Assembly (NCBI GenBank): GCA_934481355.1 | Contig: CAKSPH010000003.1 | Span: forward strand, 1 to 64,000 | DNA: 64,000 bases | Direction: 5' to 3' | Source: an uncultured Oscillospiraceae bacterium | GTDB lineage: Bacteria > Bacillota > Clostridia > Oscillospirales > Ruminococcaceae | Part shown: positions 30,544 to 62,435 of the stretch, piece by piece | How the letters are laid out: each line of letters begins with the position of its first letter | Numbering within the stretch: the stretch's first letter is position 1 | The notes under the pieces: model-generated | What the model was told of the DNA's origin: nothing | Database searches by the model: none | Seen by the model: only the letters and a program-made list of their open reading frames with translations | Position numbers and translations under genes: made by a program

Positions 30544-30594
30544 CTGCATTTCTGTGTAAAACGGGAAACACAGCAAATTTATTTCCTCATATAA

Positions 30595-30702
30595 GCATCA
30601 AACCCCTGTGATCTCTCACAGGGGTTTGACGCTGGTTTGGTTGGTAATTATATGAAAATGAACGGTGTCAAAATTCAGCAGAAAGCTACATTCCGCTTTC
30701 TG
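30595..30702 (-). ncRNA. candidate structured small RNA, copy 1
   Basis: From a promoter at 30709-30736, the predicted RNA begins with a hairpin (CAGAAAGC / GCTTTCTG, loop of 8). A linker follows that contains a 28-nt sequence shared exactly with 55984-56010 (its core reads ATAATTACCAACCAAACC). The unit ends in a 17-bp hairpin (30595-30632) with a weak T-tract. The copy at 55.9 kb has the same order of parts, while the terminal stems differ in sequence but stay paired. No open reading frame fits. I do not recognise an Rfam family. Confidence 0.6.
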
Positions 30703-30708
30703 TTATAT

Positions 30709-30736
30709 AGTATAACCTGTTCCGGTGTAATTACAA
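30709..30736 (-). promoter_or_regulatory. promoter of small RNA copy 1
   Basis: Minus strand TTGTAA (30731-30736), 16-bp spacer, TATACT (30709-30714), followed by ATATAAC as in copy 2. Confidence 0.6.
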
Positions 30737-30783
30737 TGTTTCAATTGTGAAAATTGTGTGAATTTTTGACTTGATTCGAATGT

Positions 30784-31479
30784 TCACTTCATCGCCATGC
30801 TGTTGTATGCGGTTTCCTTGAAATTGTACCTGCGGTAAGCAAAAGAAGAAATAACGCCTCCAAGCAGTGCGCCCGCGATGGCTCCTCCCGCTGCGATGAG
30901 CGCCCCAGCCCACAGCGGCAGCCCGAATCCGTACGCGGCTGCCTGAGAGCCGGGAGTCACCGACATTATAAGGATAACCCAGAACGGCAGGTAAATCAGC
31001 GCGAACGTGAATCCCCCGAACCGGAACGACATCATAGTGCAGGAAATCACAGCAATAAGCCCGCCGACGATCCCGGTGAGTATCAGCATATCCGCGATAT
31101 TGCAGACATCCCGCCCGGTTGCCAGGATAAATACCGCGTACACTATATTGGTGAGCGCTCCGCCGGCCGCCGGAACTATCGCCGAGAACAGCGGTACTCC
31201 CACGGTGTACATCTTTTCCGCGCATGGAACCGCGCGCATGAAGCGGCTCCCGACATTTTCCTGCCCAATGAATAATATCGGTATCATATCCCAGAACATC
31301 ATCGGCATAAGGGCGCATATCTTGCACATCAGGTAGTCAGCGTCACCGTCTTCGGAGAAGCCCGGGTCTGCATGGAAAATCATCACGGCGGCGAGCATTC
31401 CCACAAACAATAGCGCAATAACCAGTATTGCTATTCTGTGCCTGAAATATCTGCTGAACAGCAGTTTGATTCCCGTCAT
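30784..31479 (-). CDS. ABC exporter membrane protein (second permease)
   Basis: A 231-residue protein with six predicted helices and short loops, of ABC-2 permease type without a family-specific motif. It is the last gene of the GntR-led operon and overlaps the preceding permease gene by 4 bp (ATGA at 31476-31479). A GGGGCGGG stretch lies before the ATG. The open frame extends further upstream within the preceding gene, but without a ribosome site. It likely forms the membrane channel with the other permease and the ATPase. Substrate unknown. Confidence 0.78.
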   Translation of the reverse strand: MTGIKLLFSRYFRHRIAILVIALLFVGMLAAVMIFHADPGFSEDGDADYLMCKICALMPMMFWDMIPILFIGQENVGSRFMRAVPCAEKMYTVGVPLFSAIVPAAGGALTNIVYAVFILATGRDVCNIADMLILTGIVGGLIAVISCTMMSFRFGGFTFALIYLPFWVILIMSVTPGSQAAAYGFGLPLWAGALIAAGGAIAGALLGGVISSFAYRRYNFKETAYNSMAMK

Positions 31480-32159
31480 TTGTCCCGCCCCCACTTTCTT
31501 TCGCAGGCCTTTAACGAGTAGATAAGGCTTGCGGCGTACACTATGGCGGCGATAACGGTCAGGATCACCGCCGCAGTGATATGTCCGGCGATAAGATTTG
31601 CAAGCGAACCTTCTTCCTCGCTGGCTCCTGAAGAAAATCCCGAGATAAAGCCGAATGTGCACAGCGCTATTATTGTCGCCAGCATTCTTGCTGATGTGCT
31701 TTTCAGATATCCTACAAAATTGCACACCGCCGATTCAACGAACAGCACGATAATGCCGAAAAATATGATCCCGCAGTCCAATCCGAGAAGCGAATACACC
31801 ACTGCGGTAATAGCGAGCAGTACGGCGCCGATAAGCAGAAAAAGCGCGTTCGTGGAAACTATGGCTCTACTGAAATGCCCGGCTATATCAGGCACGGAGG
31901 CAAAATGCTTGTATCCAGGGGTCGCTGGGTTTATGTAGGTGTACAGGCTGTTCAGGAAAATAAATCCCGCCATGGGAATCATGAGGGCAAGCATTGAGGA
32001 AATTCCCTTAATGAATCCGGCGAGGAAGTCGTTTTCGCCAATTGTCATGGTTATCGCGAATACAGCGATAAAACCAGTCATGACGCCGAAAAATATCGCA
32101 AGCGATTCCATCGGGCAGCTTCCGAAAAACAGCCGGAATGACTGAACGTACTTTTTCAT
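31476..32159 (-). CDS. ABC exporter membrane protein (first permease)
   Basis: A 227-residue protein with six predicted helices (for example around residues 18-40, 46-68, 100-122, 128-150, 157-172 and 190-215). It overlaps the ATPase stop by 4 bp, as typical for genes of one ABC exporter, and overlaps the second permease by 4 bp. It resembles the paired permeases of YtrABC-type operons in organisation, though sequence similarity is not obvious by eye. Probably part of a heteromeric exporter regulated by the GntR protein. Confidence 0.78.
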   Translation of the reverse strand: MKKYVQSFRLFFGSCPMESLAIFFGVMTGFIAVFAITMTIGENDFLAGFIKGISSMLALMIPMAGFIFLNSLYTYINPATPGYKHFASVPDIAGHFSRAIVSTNALFLLIGAVLLAITAVVYSLLGLDCGIIFFGIIVLFVESAVCNFVGYLKSTSARMLATIIALCTFGFISGFSSGASEEEGSLANLIAGHITAAVILTVIAAIVYAASLIYSLKACERKWGRDK

Positions 32160-33046
32160 CTGTGCTCCTCCGCGTATTTCAGCAGCCCCACGCTCAGCTG
32201 CTGGAGCGTTGGCGCTTCGCTGTCGACGTTCATTGCCGCGAGGGTCTCCGCGTTTTCCGAAAGGGAAAGCCCGTCGAACGTGGTGCGGTTGTGGCTTCCG
32301 CTCAGGAGGTACAGCTTCGCCTTTTCGTAGTTTTCTGCGTCCCCGCGAACGATTATATACTTTTCCTTCAGATCCTCGATGAAGCCCTGTTCGATGACGT
32401 GCCCCCTGTCCATGAAAACCGCGTAGTCCGCGGCGTTCTCCATATCCGCGATATTGTGCGTTGAGAATATTATGGACTTCCTGCCGTCGCCGTCGTCGAG
32501 GTATTCCCTCATGCGGTCGCACAGCCGGTCGCGCATGAGCGGGTCAAGGGAGCTTCCGGGCTCGTCAAGCACCAGCAGCTCGGTATTCCGCGCAAAAACC
32601 GCCGCAAGGCAGGTGCGCATTCTGTTGCCGTCGGACTGCTTGGTCATGGGACGTGGCTTTCTGGTGCGCTCGCTGTCAACCTCGAATTTTTCGCACAGCT
32701 CCGCGAATTTCTGCCGGTCGAAGCTCTTGTATGCTATCTCCATGGAGACCGCGATATCCCTTGCGTTGAAGCCCAGCGGGAAAAACGCATTGCTGGCGCA
32801 GTAGCCTATCCTTTCCCGGAGCGCCGGGTCGCTTATGTCCTGCTCCGCGTTGAAGTAAGTCACCTCGCCGGAGGTCTTGTGGGTAACTCCGCAGAGAATG
32901 TCGATCAGCGTAGTTTTCCCCGCGCCGTTTGCACCGATGAGCGCAGTGGAAAAGCCCATAGGGATATTTAAGTCAAGCCCTCCAAGCGTGAATTTGCTGT
33001 ATTTTTTCGTGAGCTCCCTTGTGCTCACGCAGAAGTTGTTTTCCAT
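32156..33046 (-). CDS. ABC exporter ATP-binding protein (YtrB-like)
   Basis: A 296-residue ABC ATPase with Walker A GANGAGKTT (about residues 37-45) and Walker B LLVLDEPGSSLDP. The switch His lies in FSTHN. The ABC signature is unusual: the LSGGQ position reads MTKQSDGNRMR, so the glycine pair is replaced by Ser-Asp-Gly. This pattern also occurs in YtrB-like ATPases. ATG 33046 has AGGGAG upstream. It precedes two permease genes and follows small membrane protein genes, all under the GntR promoter at 33.95 kb. Confidence 0.85.
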   Translation of the reverse strand: MENNFCVSTRELTKKYSKFTLGGLDLNIPMGFSTALIGANGAGKTTLIDILCGVTHKTSGEVTYFNAEQDISDPALRERIGYCASNAFFPLGFNARDIAVSMEIAYKSFDRQKFAELCEKFEVDSERTRKPRPMTKQSDGNRMRTCLAAVFARNTELLVLDEPGSSLDPLMRDRLCDRMREYLDDGDGRKSIIFSTHNIADMENAADYAVFMDRGHVIEQGFIEDLKEKYIIVRGDAENYEKAKLYLLSGSHNRTTFDGLSLSENAETLAAMNVDSEAPTLQQLSVGLLKYAEEHR

Positions 33047-33075
33047 GATAATTACTCCCTGTTTCCTGCGTTTCA

Positions 33076-33264
33076 TTACAAATGTTCTATTACGAATAAA
33101 AATATGAATACCGGCAGGCAGACGATATCTGCAATTCCGATAATGCGGACTGCGATATCCGGCAGGAATCCTCCGAATATCCCGTTGACCGCCAGCAGAA
33201 GCCCGCTGAGCCCCAGTATAATAAGCGTTATCCAGTACAGGCGCTTTATTGCGATTCTGCCCAT
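33076..33264 (-). CDS. small two-helix membrane protein
   Basis: A 62-residue protein with two hydrophobic helices (about residues 9-31 and 37-59) and little else. It has a strong GAGGTGGGAG ribosome site and sits between the 76-residue protein and the ABC ATPase gene with tight spacing. It may be an accessory subunit of the exporter; no family is recognised. Confidence 0.65.
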   Translation of the reverse strand: MGRIAIKRLYWITLIILGLSGLLLAVNGIFGGFLPDIAVRIIGIADIVCLPVFIFLFVIEHL

Positions 33265-33273
33265 GCTCCCACC

Positions 33274-33504
33274 TCACATACGGTAGGAGCCCGCGCCGCC
33301 CTCGAATGCCGCGAATAACTTTTCCAGATCGTCCATGGCGGTCTTTTCGTCCGCGTAGTATGCGAGAACTCCGTCATAGGTAGTACCGAAGCCACTGGAG
33401 CCTATTATCGCGTATTTTTGTTCCTTTCCGCAGCCGAACACCTTCTGTACCGCGATGGAGACGCAGTCCTGCACCTTTTTCCTGTCCTTTGAGAATATAA
33501 GCAT
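33274..33504 (-). CDS. small soluble protein in the GntR operon
   Basis: A 76-residue protein, probably alpha/beta, with a VFGCGKEQKYAIIG segment and an acidic C-terminal half. No recognised family. Two starts are possible: ATG 33504 (AAAGGA about 12 bp upstream) or TTG 33510, which is better spaced. It lies between gntR and a small membrane protein gene in the same direction, so it is coregulated with the ABC exporter. Confidence 0.6.
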   Translation of the reverse strand: MLIFSKDRKKVQDCVSIAVQKVFGCGKEQKYAIIGSSGFGTTYDGVLAYYADEKTAMDDLEKLFAAFEGGAGSYRM

Positions 33505-33527
33505 AATCAATTACCATCCTTTCTGTA

Positions 33528-33896
33528 TCAGTCCGCGTCGTAGAGTACGCGGAGCATTTCCGCAAGCTCTTCCCGGGAAACTCCCGCCAGCTTTGCCGCC
33601 TCCATAGCGTTCTGGAGATGCTGCTCCAGTAAACGGAGCTGCTGCTCCTTTACCATCTCCCGGTCCTGCGGATTCACGATGTAGCCCTTTCCCTGAACCG
33701 GGGATATCATGCCCTCTTCTGTCAGAAGCTCATAGGCTTTCATCGTGGTTATGACGCTGATTTTCAGGTCCTTTGCAAGTCCCCGTATCGACGGGAGATA
33801 TTCTCCTTCGCGTATCCTGCCGTTCATGATATCGTCCTTGAACTGCGACGCAATCTGCCGGTAAATCGGCACATCGGAGTTCTGAAGTATTTTCAA
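33528..33896 (-). CDS. GntR family regulator, YtrA subfamily
   Basis: A 122-residue regulator with a winged helix-turn-helix (residues about 5-70; PIYRQIASQFKDDIMNG, then LPSIRGLAKDLKIS) and a short two-helix tail. This is the YtrA subfamily, which controls ABC exporters in Firmicutes. The start is a TTG with AAAGGAGG 7 bp upstream; the longer frame to 33914 starts within that site. It heads the operon and its promoter contains the inverted repeat also found before the NatA-like gene, so it probably represses both exporters. Confidence 0.88.
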   Translation of the reverse strand: MKILQNSDVPIYRQIASQFKDDIMNGRIREGEYLPSIRGLAKDLKISVITTMKAYELLTEEGMISPVQGKGYIVNPQDREMVKEQQLRLLEQHLQNAMEAAKLAGVSREELAEMLRVLYDAD

Positions 33897-33928
33897 GCGG
33901 TTTCCTCCTTTCAATGTGTTTATGTGTC

Positions 33929-52182: not shown

Positions 52183-52213
52183 TTTTACGCAGATTTCCCA
52201 TGGACAAAAAGAT

Positions 52214-52236
52214 CCCGCAGCTTTGAGGGCTGCGGG
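52214..52236 (+). terminator. hairpin after recR
   Basis: CCCGCAGC and GCTGCGGG pair (8 bp, 7-nt loop). No T-run follows, so its use as terminator is uncertain. The rest of the 290-bp gap to 52473 has a TATAAT at 52388 with a poor -35, probably the promoter of the MATE gene. Confidence 0.4.
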
Positions 52237-52473
52237 TAATGAGATATAACGTCCGCACGAAAAAAGGAAGGAAAACGTACGGCCGCATGATGATAACACA
52301 TCATAAAAAAGGGGAGGTTGGTTGTTGGTTTGCCGCGGTCCCGCGGCGCTTGTTCGGCGATGACCTGTATGTCATCTGCTATGATTATATAATACACCAC
52401 ATCTATGAATTTAGCGTAATCGAAATGTGAAATAATGGTGAAAGATAAAAGAGCAAAAGAAAAGAGTGAAAAA

Positions 52474-55792: not shown

Positions 55793-55904
55793 GACAGCGT
55801 TTGTAAAATTAGTGATAAGATATTTTTGTAATTATTGCTAGTTCCTTTCGTGCGTTTTTATCTATTTTTCACATTGCGAACGTATATAATTCACGTTCCA
55901 TGGT

Positions 55905-55910
55905 TATAAT
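55905..55910 (+). promoter_or_regulatory. -10 box of small RNA copy 2
   Basis: TATAAT followed by ATAACCG, parallel to TATACT-ATATAACAG at copy 1. The -35 region is poor; an inverted repeat GAACGT/ACGTTC (55878-55898) lies in its place and may bind a regulator. Confidence 0.5.
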
Positions 55911-55912
55911 AT

Positions 55913-56048
55913 AACCGTAAAGCAAAGGGAACAGCAATTCGGGACACAGACCGGAGCTTTACATTAAAATGCTAACCGCACCTTTTCATATAATTACCAA
56001 CCAAACCAGCATCAGACCCCCGCGGGTAAAATCGCGGGGGTCTGATGT
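55913..56048 (+). ncRNA. candidate structured small RNA, copy 2
   Basis: The predicted RNA starts with a stem GTAAAGC/GCTTTAC (55917-55923 with 55956-55962) that encloses a second stem TTCGG/CCGGA. A linker follows with the 28-nt sequence shared with copy 1 (55984-56010), and then a 16-bp hairpin (56009-56048) with an 8-nt loop. Compared with copy 1 the last stem keeps GC(A/G)TCA(A/G)ACCCC but differs further up while staying paired. It lies between pyk and the metK riboswitch, outside any gene. Confidence 0.6.
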
Positions 56049-56100
56049 TTCTGTCGGGCTTTCAGAAAGAAAATATTTTCATGAACAGGTGTTCAAGGTA

Positions 56101-56129: not shown

Positions 56130-56146
56130 AAATATCGACAAAAAAC

Positions 56147-56332
56147 CTTATCAAGAGCGGCTTCGTGCATTTTGCGGGGGACTGGTCCCTATGAAGCCCG
56201 GCAACCTCTCCTGTTGATGTCTGCGTTATCGCGCAGTGCGGAGGGAAAAGGTGCTACTTCCTGCGGCGGTTTATCCGGCCGAAAGATGAGGAGTGATACG
56301 ATCTTCGGCTCACTCCTTGGAGTGAGTTTTTT
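56147..56332 (+). promoter_or_regulatory. SAM-I (S-box) riboswitch with terminator
   Basis: The aptamer (about 56147-56290) has the S-box features CTTATCAAGAG, GACTGGTCCCTATGAAGC, CCGGCAACC, GGTGCTA and GAAAGATGAG at the 3' side of P1. The expression platform is a terminator CTCACTCC-TT-GGAGTGAG followed by six T (56309-56332). Bound S-adenosylmethionine should favour termination and lower metK expression. Confidence 0.95.
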
Positions 56333-59476: not shown

Positions 59477-60231
59477 TTCGTATATCCTTTTTGCTGCTTG
59501 AAAAAATACTCCGTCACGAATTCCGGGAACCTTTCCCGGGGAGAGGTGACCTTTCTGCGCGCCGTTATCATGTCCTCCGGCATATCGTCGGGGAACAGCG
59601 CCGTATCTGCGATATTCAGCAGGGGCACGTCCATAGGGCTGTCTCCCGCGCATATTATCTCTTGCCCGGGAGCCGCCCTGTCGGCAAGCCGTTTTGCGAG
59701 TGTACCCTTACAGAGCTTTTCCGGCAGGGCGTAAAGCTTCGCTCCGGTGCAGAAGCATTTCACGCGCTCTCCGGCGGCGCCCCTGAGCGATTCCAGCGAG
59801 ATTTCCGGGCGCTGCGACTTTGTGAAGAGGAACAGCCCGTCAACCATGCGTATCTCAAAGCTGCGGTGAGGGTCGCGCTCCATGGCTTCGCGGCAGCGGG
59901 AGAGCTCCGCGCGGCATTCCTGCGTGAAGCTGCGGGTGAGCTCCGCCCATTCCGGGTCGGGAGTACCGTTCACCAGCAGAGTGCCGCCGTTGTCCGCGAG
60001 GGCGTATTCCGGCGCGAAGCCCTCCGGGAAGCTTATCCTGCGGTACTGCTCAATGCTCCGGGTGGTCACCGGGATCACCGTAATCCCGGGCAGAAGCTCC
60101 GCCTGCCTTGCCGTAATGCAGGATATTTCAGCGCCGTCCTTGTATTCGCATACAACGTCCCCGGGAAGCTTTTTCCCGGCGGAGAAAATCAGCGTGCCGT
60201 CAAGGTCAGAGAAGAAAACCGCGTCACACAT
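59473..60231 (-). CDS. HAD family hydrolase (Ter-associated type)
   Basis: A 252-residue HAD phosphatase: FSDLDGTLI (nucleophile Asp9, Asp11), a Cof/sucrose-phosphatase-like cap, TTRS for the second motif and AGDSPMDVPLL for the metal-binding acid pair. Its place directly after a PRTase/StiP gene, overlapping it by 8 bp, fits the HAD enzymes of Ter-associated stress gene sets, which are thought to dephosphorylate a nucleoside-like intermediate. That role is inference from context. Confidence 0.85.
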   Translation of the reverse strand: MCDAVFFSDLDGTLIFSAGKKLPGDVVCEYKDGAEISCITARQAELLPGITVIPVTTRSIEQYRRISFPEGFAPEYALADNGGTLLVNGTPDPEWAELTRSFTQECRAELSRCREAMERDPHRSFEIRMVDGLFLFTKSQRPEISLESLRGAAGERVKCFCTGAKLYALPEKLCKGTLAKRLADRAAPGQEIICAGDSPMDVPLLNIADTALFPDDMPEDMITARRKVTSPRERFPEFVTEYFFKQQKGYTK

Positions 60232-62413
60232 TGTCCATCACCCTGATTATGCCGCAGGCCTCGTAGCACCTGAGCGGGTACTCCCGGACTTCAACGCCCT
60301 TTTCCTGCGCCAGCTCCACTATGTGCCGGGTAAGCGGGCTGTTTTTGTCCCGCAGGAGTATCAGCTCCGGAATGCGCCGCAGGAGCACCCGGGTAGTTTC
60401 GCCGATCCCCGGTTTTACCAGCTTGATGTCCTTCACGCCGAATTTCTCAGCGATATCCCGCGCCTCCGCAAGACCGCCGCCGGATATTGCCAGAGGGAGG
60501 GGAGCGGCTTCATAGCTCATTTCGCGCTCTATCGCCGAGATGAAATCCATCGTCCGGTCGGAGCCCGCAAGCTCCCCGAAGTACGCCGCCCCGTGGAATC
60601 CGTCCGGACTTATCAGTCCGTCTTTCAGCACGGTGCGGCTGAAAAGCCCGGAAACCACGCTGTTAAGGCAGGCGCAGGGGATAAACATATCCTTGTGAGT
60701 CCCGCACAGCCTGCAAAGCCCGGCAGGGTCAGCGAGCACGGCGATCTCGCACAGCCTGTCGAGCCTGTCCCTGCCTATCCCGTATTCATACAGCGGGAAT
60801 TGCTCCATAGCGCTGCGGAGGGTGCGGGTTATCATGCCCTTTCCCGTCCAGCCGTCGATGAACTGGATCCCCCCGGCGGGGTGCCGTGCGAGGATATATT
60901 CCATAGCCCGGCGGTCTATTCCGCGCCCGACGATTATCGAAATTGAGTAGTGCGGCAGGGAAACGCCGTATTTCTTCCGGATATAGCGCTTTATCAGCAC
61001 TCCTGCCGGAGTGCCCGCCCGTGCGAGGGAGACAAGCACGGCGCGCCTGCCCTTTTCCGCCCATATCGCTTCTGCAACTGTGCGTACCGCGTCTGCGTTC
61101 GGCTTCGCCCAGAGCTTCAGCCCGCGCTCATATTCCTGAAAATACGCCGGGGACGGCTCGTATTCCGCCGGGAGGAGCTCGCTGTAATGCGTCCCGCCCT
61201 GTATCAGCTTTTCGCGCTCCTTTGCGGGCAGCGGCGGGAGCTTTCCGGTGACGTCGGTCAGCAGAAGCTGAACGTCCTCCGGCGGGTAGCTTGTCGGGAG
61301 CTTCTTCCCGTGCCAGTGGATAACGACCGCCTTTCTGCCACCTGCGGCTCCGCAGAGCGCCCGCAGCGCGGATTCGTCCGGCGATTCCGCGTCCGTCATG
61401 ATGACGCTGAGGTCGCACGGCTGGCTGTTGTAGAGGTGCACGGTGCGCTCCGGGTCGTAAACGCTCGGAAGCTTCGCGCGGTTCACTATCGGGTATTCTC
61501 CGGGCGCGGGGAGCTCAAAACCGCCCCTGCCGGATTCCGCCGGGAGCATAGGACTTCTGGTGGTGCAGTGAACCACGACCCGTCCGAATTTCTTCGAGAG
61601 CATTTTCCCCAGAAGAAGCGGCGCATAGCAGAATTCCTCCGTGCCGATTATCTCCAGCACCTTGCCGGGGGAATCAGGAAATTCCGCCGCAAGCCGGGCG
61701 CAGAAGCCGCGCGTTTCCGTGATGAAGCTGTCTGAGATTACGCCGAGCCGCGGGTCGAATATCGCGTTTATGTGCCGTATCTCTCCGGCGCTCCGAGGCT
61801 GCGTTTCCCTGTCGGGAATGAAGCTGTCCGGGATCGTGCGGTTGGTCATATCATCAAGCCGGGCGAGATAAACCGGGGTCATTCCATTGTCGGAGAGAAG
61901 CTCAAGGCTCTCCGCCGAAGCCGCCAGAGCCGCCGCGAATATATCGCACCCCGGCGCAAGACAGCCGTCCAGGGCGTTTTTGAGGTTTACGGCGGTGCGC
62001 CCGGTTGTGAATTCATCGTCCACAAAAATCACCTGCGAAGCCCTGCGGAGCGCGTCCTCGTCCCGCACGCACAGGAAGTGCTGCTTGGCGTGGCTGTGGC
62101 GTTCCTCAAATGAAATTGCCGGAGCCCAATCCGGGAGCTTTTCCCTTGTGGTGGTCAGCAGAAAGCAGTCGTGGAAGAATCCGGATACCACCGCGCCTAT
62201 CGCCGTGGCAGTCTCCGCGAATGCGACAACAACGGTGGGCTTTTCCGAGCGCCCGTCCTGCGCGAGCTTCTGCCCGAGCTGCTCCATCAGCTCCAGCGAA
62301 GCCGCCGGGTCGGACGGAAAATGCTTAGCCTGCCGCGTGTTCAGGATTATGTGGGCGCGGTTGGGATTGTTCTCGCGCTTTGCGAGAAACAGGTGCGATA
62401 CGTTGCTTTTCAT
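60224..62413 (-). CDS. fused phosphoribosyltransferase-TRSP-StiP protein
   Basis: A 729-residue protein that joins modules usually on separate genes. The N-terminal PRTase_2 part (about 10-200) has the PRPP loop VIFVDDEFTTGRTAVN near 135-150; a TRSP-like domain follows (to about 390). The C-terminal half (about 410-729) matches the StiP/PRTase_1 family (SLARAGTPAGVLIKRY, GWTGKGMITR). These families occur in Ter-associated pathways predicted to make a nucleoside-like compound. ATG 62413 has GGAG; an ATG six codons earlier has no site. Operon with PHP, HAD and hemZ. Confidence 0.82.
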   Translation of the reverse strand: MKSNVSHLFLAKRENNPNRAHIILNTRQAKHFPSDPAASLELMEQLGQKLAQDGRSEKPTVVVAFAETATAIGAVVSGFFHDCFLLTTTREKLPDWAPAISFEERHSHAKQHFLCVRDEDALRRASQVIFVDDEFTTGRTAVNLKNALDGCLAPGCDIFAAALAASAESLELLSDNGMTPVYLARLDDMTNRTIPDSFIPDRETQPRSAGEIRHINAIFDPRLGVISDSFITETRGFCARLAAEFPDSPGKVLEIIGTEEFCYAPLLLGKMLSKKFGRVVVHCTTRSPMLPAESGRGGFELPAPGEYPIVNRAKLPSVYDPERTVHLYNSQPCDLSVIMTDAESPDESALRALCGAAGGRKAVVIHWHGKKLPTSYPPEDVQLLLTDVTGKLPPLPAKEREKLIQGGTHYSELLPAEYEPSPAYFQEYERGLKLWAKPNADAVRTVAEAIWAEKGRRAVLVSLARAGTPAGVLIKRYIRKKYGVSLPHYSISIIVGRGIDRRAMEYILARHPAGGIQFIDGWTGKGMITRTLRSAMEQFPLYEYGIGRDRLDRLCEIAVLADPAGLCRLCGTHKDMFIPCACLNSVVSGLFSRTVLKDGLISPDGFHGAAYFGELAGSDRTMDFISAIEREMSYEAAPLPLAISGGGLAEARDIAEKFGVKDIKLVKPGIGETTRVLLRRIPELILLRDKNSPLTRHIVELAQEKGVEVREYPLRCYEACGIIRVMDNV

Positions 62414-62435
62414 ATTTACTCCAAACCTCATTGTC

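What the first reader, a model, noticed from the sequence alone, without database searches (positions are those of the whole stretch)
30595..30736. Two-copy family of a structured small RNA (copy 1; copy 2 at 55905-56048)
Seen: two intergenic units 25 kb apart in opposite orientation share a -10 region followed by ATATAAC or ATAAC, a 5' hairpin with an AAAGC/GCTTT stem, an identical stretch of about 28 nt (core ATAATTACCAACCAAACC) and a 16-17 bp 3' hairpin. The 3' stems differ in several pairs yet remain complementary, a sign of covariation. Neither overlaps a gene. Inferred: a small RNA with the CCAACCAAACC linker as a possible anti-Shine-Dalgarno-like seed, since its complement contains GGTTGG.
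Basis: partly seen in the sequence, partly recalled or inferred. Interest (0 to 1): 0.75.

Follow-up and report, generated by a model that had tools for sequence, protein, structure and literature searches.

The report
Candidate start-site-blocking small RNA family
These two short sequences look like small RNA genes of uncultured gut bacteria, apparently switched on by a stress-sensing regulator and shaped to stick to the start sites of other messages, a type of control so far known to us from streptococci and Listeria.

Summary
Anatomy: promoter, variable 5' hairpin, unpaired linker, 18-bp terminator-like hairpin with strong covariation (13 of 18 pairs change on both sides). Two things were missed. 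The promoter carries TTCAC repeats at an 11-bp period, fixed relative to the -10, as at OmpR/PhoB-type activator sites; the same box precedes an alarmone synthetase, Hpt/FtsH, a MarR regulator, HtrA (in relatives) and a second, anti-Shine-Dalgarno sRNA at 52389-52205. And the linker is the antisense of a translation start: its complement reads GG-7 nt-AUG-AAA-AG. Best explanation: a stress-induced sRNA that blocks translation initiation, probably of envelope proteins; it works like streptococcal csRNAs but is not one (no CiaR box, no csRNA nonamer). Predicted pairing favours membrane/secreted genes more than in any of 100 shuffles, but AT-rich spacers may explain part of that, and no single conserved target was found. 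Expression, regulator and targets are untested.

The parts
30590..30704 (-). sRNA copy 1, predicted transcript (start near 30704-30701, end uncertain)
   Evidence: sequence; homologues; model R1
30709..30762 (-). copy 1 promoter: TTCAC at 30762-30758 and 30751-30747, -10 TATACT at 30714-30709
   Evidence: 54.1 bits; copy is in the training set
30679..30702 (-). copy 1 5' hairpin
   Evidence: z -4.57
30634..30678 (-). copy 1 linker; core ATAATTACCAACCAAACC at 30651-30634; anti-start CAU within UUUUCAUAUA
30593..30633 (-). copy 1 3' hairpin, terminator-like, weak U tract
55916..56050 (+). sRNA copy 2, predicted transcript
   Evidence: sequence; homologues
55868..55910 (+). copy 2 promoter: TTCAC at 55868-55872 and 55890-55894, -10 TATAAT at 55905-55910
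   Evidence: 40.5 bits; copy is in the training set
55917..55962 (+). copy 2 5' hairpin
   Evidence: z -2.38
55963..56007 (+). copy 2 linker; core at 55990-56007
56008..56048 (+). copy 2 3' hairpin
52205..52389 (-). second, unrelated sRNA candidate with the same promoter type; linker CCAACCTCCCC, then CCTTCCTT, terminator at 52236-52205
   Evidence: promoter matrix hit 52452-52389, 24.2 bits, not in the training set; homologues in G001-G004; no Rfam match
30784..33914 (-). GntR regulator, ABC ATPase and membrane protein; a cluster on the same strand that ends just before copy 1
   Evidence: last-gene family directly upstream in 11 of 33 members
60224..62431 (-). PRTase_2/TRSP/StiP/PELOTA gene; predicted target in the window (start used: ATG near 62413)
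   Evidence: pairing energy -22.2 and -21.3 kcal/mol for the two linkers; domains

Best explanation
Each unit is a trans-acting small RNA gene of about 110-135 nt. An OmpR/PhoB-type response regulator (identity unknown) binds TTCAC repeats at an 11-bp period and activates transcription. The product is a 5' hairpin, an unpaired linker and a terminator hairpin. The linker is the antisense of a translation initiation region (SD, 7-8 nt, AUG-AAA-A), so it pairs over the ribosome binding site and start codon of target mRNAs and blocks initiation. The regulator's other genes (FtsH and an alarmone synthetase here; HtrA and a SurA/PPIC foldase in relatives) and the pairing preference suggest a brake on envelope proteins under envelope stress. 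Shown: the family, promoter anatomy, hairpins, complementarity. Inferred: expression, regulator class, translational block, the stress signal, the target class.
For: 33 members with the core and ten divergent ones. Covarying 3' hairpin, 5' hairpin. TTCAC at -37 in 25 of 33 and at -48 in 20 of 33; box-plus-(-10) pattern 105 hits, 2 control, in 27 bearing genomes; recurrent genes downstream; HtrA-type and PPIC genes in relatives. Complement of the linker reads as SD-spacer-AUG-AAA; CAU and its distance to a C-rich block are kept in divergent members. GGTAATTATATG: 32 non-sRNA sites in 27 bearing genomes (control 6), 5 in 30 others (control 2). 16 of 22 gene-start sites are membrane/secreted, background 169 of 554. 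Pairing preference for such genes beyond all 100 shuffles for both linkers.
Against: No expression data. No excess of long complements (15 non-sRNA hits, 11 control) and no single conserved target. Permuted AT spacers average 10.9 hits per variant, but the two commonest reach 24 and 25 in the listed, cut-off part, so 32 is only moderately high outside G001-G004. Among background genes with an all-AT 7-nt spacer 10 of 20 are membrane/secreted, so AT richness may explain part of the bias. A stricter signal-peptide split was not significant (p 0.2 and 0.12). Mean pairing to all starts is no better than shuffles. Non-bearing genomes were not matched for G+C. The divergent members L068 and L083 lack a clear box.
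Confidence: 0.65

Rival explanations
1. A trans-acting sRNA with the same pairing chemistry but a different job: a few specific targets (transport, metabolism) rather than envelope proteins as a class.
For: No clear class in the raw target list; hpt and an alarmone synthetase in the regulon; the best window target is a stress-type PRTase/StiP gene.
Against: Membrane/secreted bias of predicted sites; HtrA, FtsH and PPIC genes behind the same box.
Confidence: 0.2
2. An RNA that acts by binding a protein or another sRNA (decoy or sponge), the linker being a protein site.
For: Unpaired linker of near-constant sequence; purine-rich 5' loops in many members.
Against: The linker reads as an ordered anti-start sequence, and its C-rich half changes while the layout stays.
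Confidence: 0.08
3. A cis element: leader, attenuator or plain terminator of a neighbouring gene.
For: In 11 of 33 members it directly follows the last gene of a GntR-ABC cluster on the same strand.
Against: Own promoter with fixed repeats; next gene convergent in 16 of 30; several unrelated neighbourhoods; conserved linker without function in a terminator.
Confidence: 0.04
4. A mobile repeat, or an mRNA for a small peptide.
For: Two copies per genome in the window's clade.
Against: One copy in 6 of 10 bearing genomes tested, recurrent neighbourhoods; SD-preceded ORF across the core in 1 of 33; divergent members have linker indels not in threes.
Confidence: 0.03

Closest known systems
csRNAs (CiaR-dependent sRNAs, Streptococcus); passages of PMC3091779 and PMC4507080
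   Same: Response-regulator direct-repeat box before the -10; two stem-loops flanking an unpaired region complementary to SD and AUG; several copies; HtrA in the same regulon
   Different: Box is TTCAC/TTTCAC-N5, not TTTAAG-N5-TTTAAG; csRNA nonamer absent; linker sequence different; mostly one or two copies; different bacteria
LhrC1-5 (Listeria, LisRK); passages of PMC4132741
   Same: Multicopy sRNA controlled by a two-component system under envelope stress; blocks translation of a surface protein mRNA
   Different: LhrC uses repeated UCCC motifs; the window copies have none in their transcripts (read)
RoxS/RsaE and FsrA type C-rich sRNAs (named in a passage of PMC4132741; the rest recalled)
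   Same: C-rich unpaired block that faces Shine-Dalgarno sequences
   Different: No anti-AUG block recalled for them; different regulators
Envelope-stress sRNAs of Gram-negatives (sigma-E, Cpx; recalled only)
   Same: Stress regulator induces sRNAs that lower envelope protein synthesis
   Different: Unrelated sequences; Hfq-type biology; targets chosen one by one

Membership tests
csRNA | CiaR box TTTAAG-N5-TTTAAG before the -10 | tested here: not met
   best match in 33 upstream stretches: 2 mismatches in 1, 3 in 1, 4 or 5 in 31; TTTCAC-N5-TTTCAC has 0-1 mismatch in 27
csRNA | Unpaired region complementary to SD and AUG between two stem-loops | tested here: met
csRNA | Conserved nonamer [A/C]UCCUAAA[A/C] | tested here: not met
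   no exact match in 33; one member with 1 mismatch, 32 with 2-3
csRNA | Expression dependent on CiaR | not testable with these tools
   no expression data
LhrC | UCCC motifs | tested here: not met
   none in the predicted transcripts of the two window copies (read)
LhrC | LisR-dependent induction by envelope stress | not testable with these tools
   regulator not identified
Any Rfam 15 family | Score at or above the gathering cut-off | tested here: not met
   second sRNA; only sub-threshold matches
Pho regulon | Same box at phosphate-uptake (PstS) genes | tested here: not met
   PstS-like matches, all below cut-off, in 5 of 10 genomes; no matrix hit above 11 bits in those ten loci

The most novel reading that the evidence does not exclude
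The linker is a generic antisense of export-type translation starts (SD, AT-rich spacer, AUG-AAA as in Met-Lys signal-peptide starts), so under envelope stress one RNA lowers synthesis of envelope proteins as a class, helped in the window's clade by a second anti-SD sRNA under the same regulator: a counterpart of the sigma-E/Cpx sRNA logic aimed at the signal-peptide start itself.
Probability: 0.27. Interest if true: 0.8.

Novelty: new variant of a known kind. Interest (0 to 1): 0.62.

Why it matters
If true, it gives a concrete stress circuit (readable promoter box, readable seed, predicted target class) in a large uncultured group of gut and rumen bacteria for which my searches (listings only) showed no comparable sRNA. 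It would also suggest, by inference, that the csRNA way of working (activator box plus anti-start RNA) arose more than once.

Tried and rejected
Viral scan with the core: 8 stretches, all with flanks lacking the TTTTCAT block and the hairpin; taken as chance.

Pho regulon: no box at the PstS-like loci. Rex/CRP-like inverted repeats (consensus recalled): only some members have an upstream GTG half, while the direct repeats are general. Leader, mobile repeat, peptide: see rivals.

Long complement as a route to one conserved target: no excess. Strict signal-peptide split: not significant. Spacer TAATTAT in 3 of 156 GG-N7-ATG starts against 0.05 expected by a column model is post hoc, and another spacer also occurs 3 times.

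Distribution: order 18 of 394 genomes, family 17 of 297, class with the broader model 11 of 391, G001 counted each time. Many matches are terminator-like only. By eye I kept ten new sequences: L066, L067, L244 (3 genomes) and L068, L069, L070, L073, L078, L083, L084 (5 genomes); the rest, including the third match in G003 (L065), were left out. L009 is cut by its contig end and is not in the alignments; A4 holds 28 of the 42 others. L330 and L331 were dropped as doubtful starts; with them 16 of 24, p 0.0005; with one of two near-identical orthologues dropped 15 of 21, p 0.0002.

Second sRNA: exact motif only in G003 of 297 family genomes; the seven 1-mismatch hits do not exceed the reversed-pattern control.

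Full report
CHECK OF THE OBSERVATION. Both units exist as described. The 18-nt core ATAATTACCAACCAAACC is found exactly twice in the window; 0.01 expected with up to 3 mismatches. No Rfam family reaches its gathering score there; SRP RNA and a SAM riboswitch are the only two matches in the window.

THE FAMILY. A scan of genome contigs for the exact core gave 42 stretches. 31 lie in MAGs titled Clostridia, Oscillospiraceae or Ruminococcaceae (27 genomes, four with two), and all 31 carry TTTTCAT just before the core; the other 11 lie in unrelated organisms and lack it. With the window this makes 33 members. Invariance inside the 18-mer is by construction; the TTTTCAT block, the hairpins and the promoter were not part of the probe. 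A covariance model of linker plus 3' hairpin (32 of the 33) finds two copies in G001, G002, G003 and G004, the window's closest relatives by DNA, and one in each of six other bearing genomes (a third, weak match in G003 was not counted). Searches of the order (18 of 394 genomes) and the family (17 of 297) add ten sequences that look real: three with TTACCAACCA and seven with ATTTCCCCAAAGC or similar. The class-level search added none that convinced me.

STRUCTURE. The 3' hairpin has 18 pairs, 13 with changes on both sides; 96.4% of cells pair, 75.1% after shuffling and 35.7-49.0% after sliding. The 5' hairpin has no conserved sequence but folds better than dinucleotide shuffles in many members (mean z -2.26; 20 of 33 with p<0.05). 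Between them lies the linker.

PROMOTER AND REGULON. Aligned at the -10 without gaps, TTCAC stands at -37 in 25 of 33 and at -48 in 20 of 33; degenerate repeats follow near -26 and -15. The pattern TTCAC-N6-TTCAC-N32-TAWAAT with at most one mismatch gave 105 hits against 2 for the reversed pattern, in 26 of 27 bearing genomes. Of the 105, 26 are this sRNA (13 read, 13 assigned by position) and 5 the second sRNA (two of them at contig ends of G001, perhaps one site). Of the 90 read, the largest protein groups are a RelA/SpoT-domain small alarmone synthetase (18), hypoxanthine phosphoribosyltransferase (17, plus 3 with FtsH as the first ORF found) and a MarR regulator (11); many singletons have no clear theme. 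Family names rest on one representative each. A shorter box pattern (36 hits, 0 control) also lies before an M23 peptidase (L117) and a PBP1A gene (L121; L132 similar by eye), among many hits that do not look like promoters. In 100 genomes of the family, mostly without a detected copy, 56 have a hit (88 hits, 10 control). Of 19 new loci read, L368, L376, L378 and L379 stand before trypsin-like proteases, three of the four with PDZ domains (L378 is cut by its locus end), and L371 before a SurA/PPIC protein. So the box probably predates the sRNA and its genes recall extracytoplasmic-stress regulons (CiaR and HtrA; others recalled).

A SECOND sRNA. The promoter matrix gave three window sites above 11 bits: the two copies, which trained it, and one at 52452-52389 on the minus strand (24.2 bits, not in training). 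Downstream lie two small hairpins, a linker with CCAACCTCCCC, a CCTTCCTT stretch and a strong terminator. Homologues occur in G001-G004.

HOW IT PROBABLY WORKS. The complement of the linker is GGTTTGGTTGGTAATTAT-ATG-AAA-A(G): G-rich SD, 7-nt spacer, AUG, AAA. In the divergent type it is GGGG, about 8 nt, AUG-AAA-A. The C-rich block changes while CAU and its distance remain. Tests of targets are mixed. A 19-nt complement with up to 3 mismatches shows little excess (15 non-sRNA hits, 11 control, 10 genomes). The exact 12-mer GGTAATTATATG has 32 non-sRNA sites in 27 bearing genomes (control 6) and 5 in 30 non-bearing ones (control 2), not matched for G+C. Sixteen permuted AT spacers average 10.9 hits (174 in all), but the two commonest reach 24 and 25 in the listed part of a cut-off list; in G001-G004 the contrast is 12 against 0.9, elsewhere 20 against 10. 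Of the 32 sites 24 start an ORF of at least 70 aa; two were dropped as doubtful; 16 of 22 encode membrane or secreted proteins by a simple hydropathy rule, against 169 of 554 background genes (p 8e-5; 5e-4 with the two kept) and 32 of 101 genes with AT-rich spacers, but 10 of 20 with an all-AT spacer. The background is 723,848 bases of G003 (about a quarter) plus the window, with home-made gene calls. Over those 554 starts pairing favours membrane/secreted genes by 0.93 and 1.00 kcal/mol for the two linkers, more than any of 100 mononucleotide shuffles each; in the best 40 starts, 22 and 17 are such genes (0 and 5 of 100 shuffles reach that); mean pairing to all starts is ordinary. A narrower signal-peptide split was not significant (p 0.2, 0.12).

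COMPARISON. Passages of PMC3091779 describe csRNAs: two stem-loops, an unpaired region complementary to SD and AUG, the box TTTAAG-N5-TTTAAG, CAU in 53 of 61. Abstract and passages of PMC4507080: comC, four transporters and a DNA-binding protein as targets, additive action. LhrC: passages of PMC4132741. The present family works like these on paper but is not a csRNA: box and nonamer were tested and not met. Searches for earlier reports saw listings only: 20 of 95, 9 of 9, 12 of 19, 4 of 4, 10 of 29; a search for the letters CCAACCAAACC found 27 papers, 5 listed, none on a bacterial sRNA by title. None described this family. The library holds open-licence papers only, and the candidate set of PMC8040213 (passages) could contain it in supplements that I could not read.

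VERDICT. A real sRNA family not in Rfam 15; anti-start pairing and an OmpR-type activator box are well supported by anatomy; envelope stress and the target class are plausible and unproven.

Noticed in passing
window 52389-52205 (-): Second sRNA candidate with the same promoter type and two anti-Shine-Dalgarno stretches (CCTCCCC, CCTTCCTT), next to recR; homologues in G001-G004.
   Followed up: partly
loci L154-L243: The TTCAC box stands before a small alarmone synthetase (18 hits), hpt or ftsH (20) and a MarR regulator (11) in the 27 bearing genomes: a possible stress regulon.
   Followed up: partly
L368, L376, L378, L379 and similar hits: In relatives, TTCAC at -48, -37 and -15 plus a -10 precede HtrA-type proteases.
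   Followed up: partly
L350 and L351: Two genomes share another possible RNA (TATATATCCATACCCAAACAAAAGGGCACC plus hairpin) with a different layout.
   Followed up: no
window 60224-62431 (-): Fused PRTase_2/TRSP/StiP/PELOTA stress-type gene whose start pairs well with both linkers.
   Followed up: partly
window 56145-56292 (+): SAM riboswitch before metK, just downstream of copy 2; copy 1 faces the end of metG. Probably coincidence, since most other members have other neighbours.
   Followed up: partly
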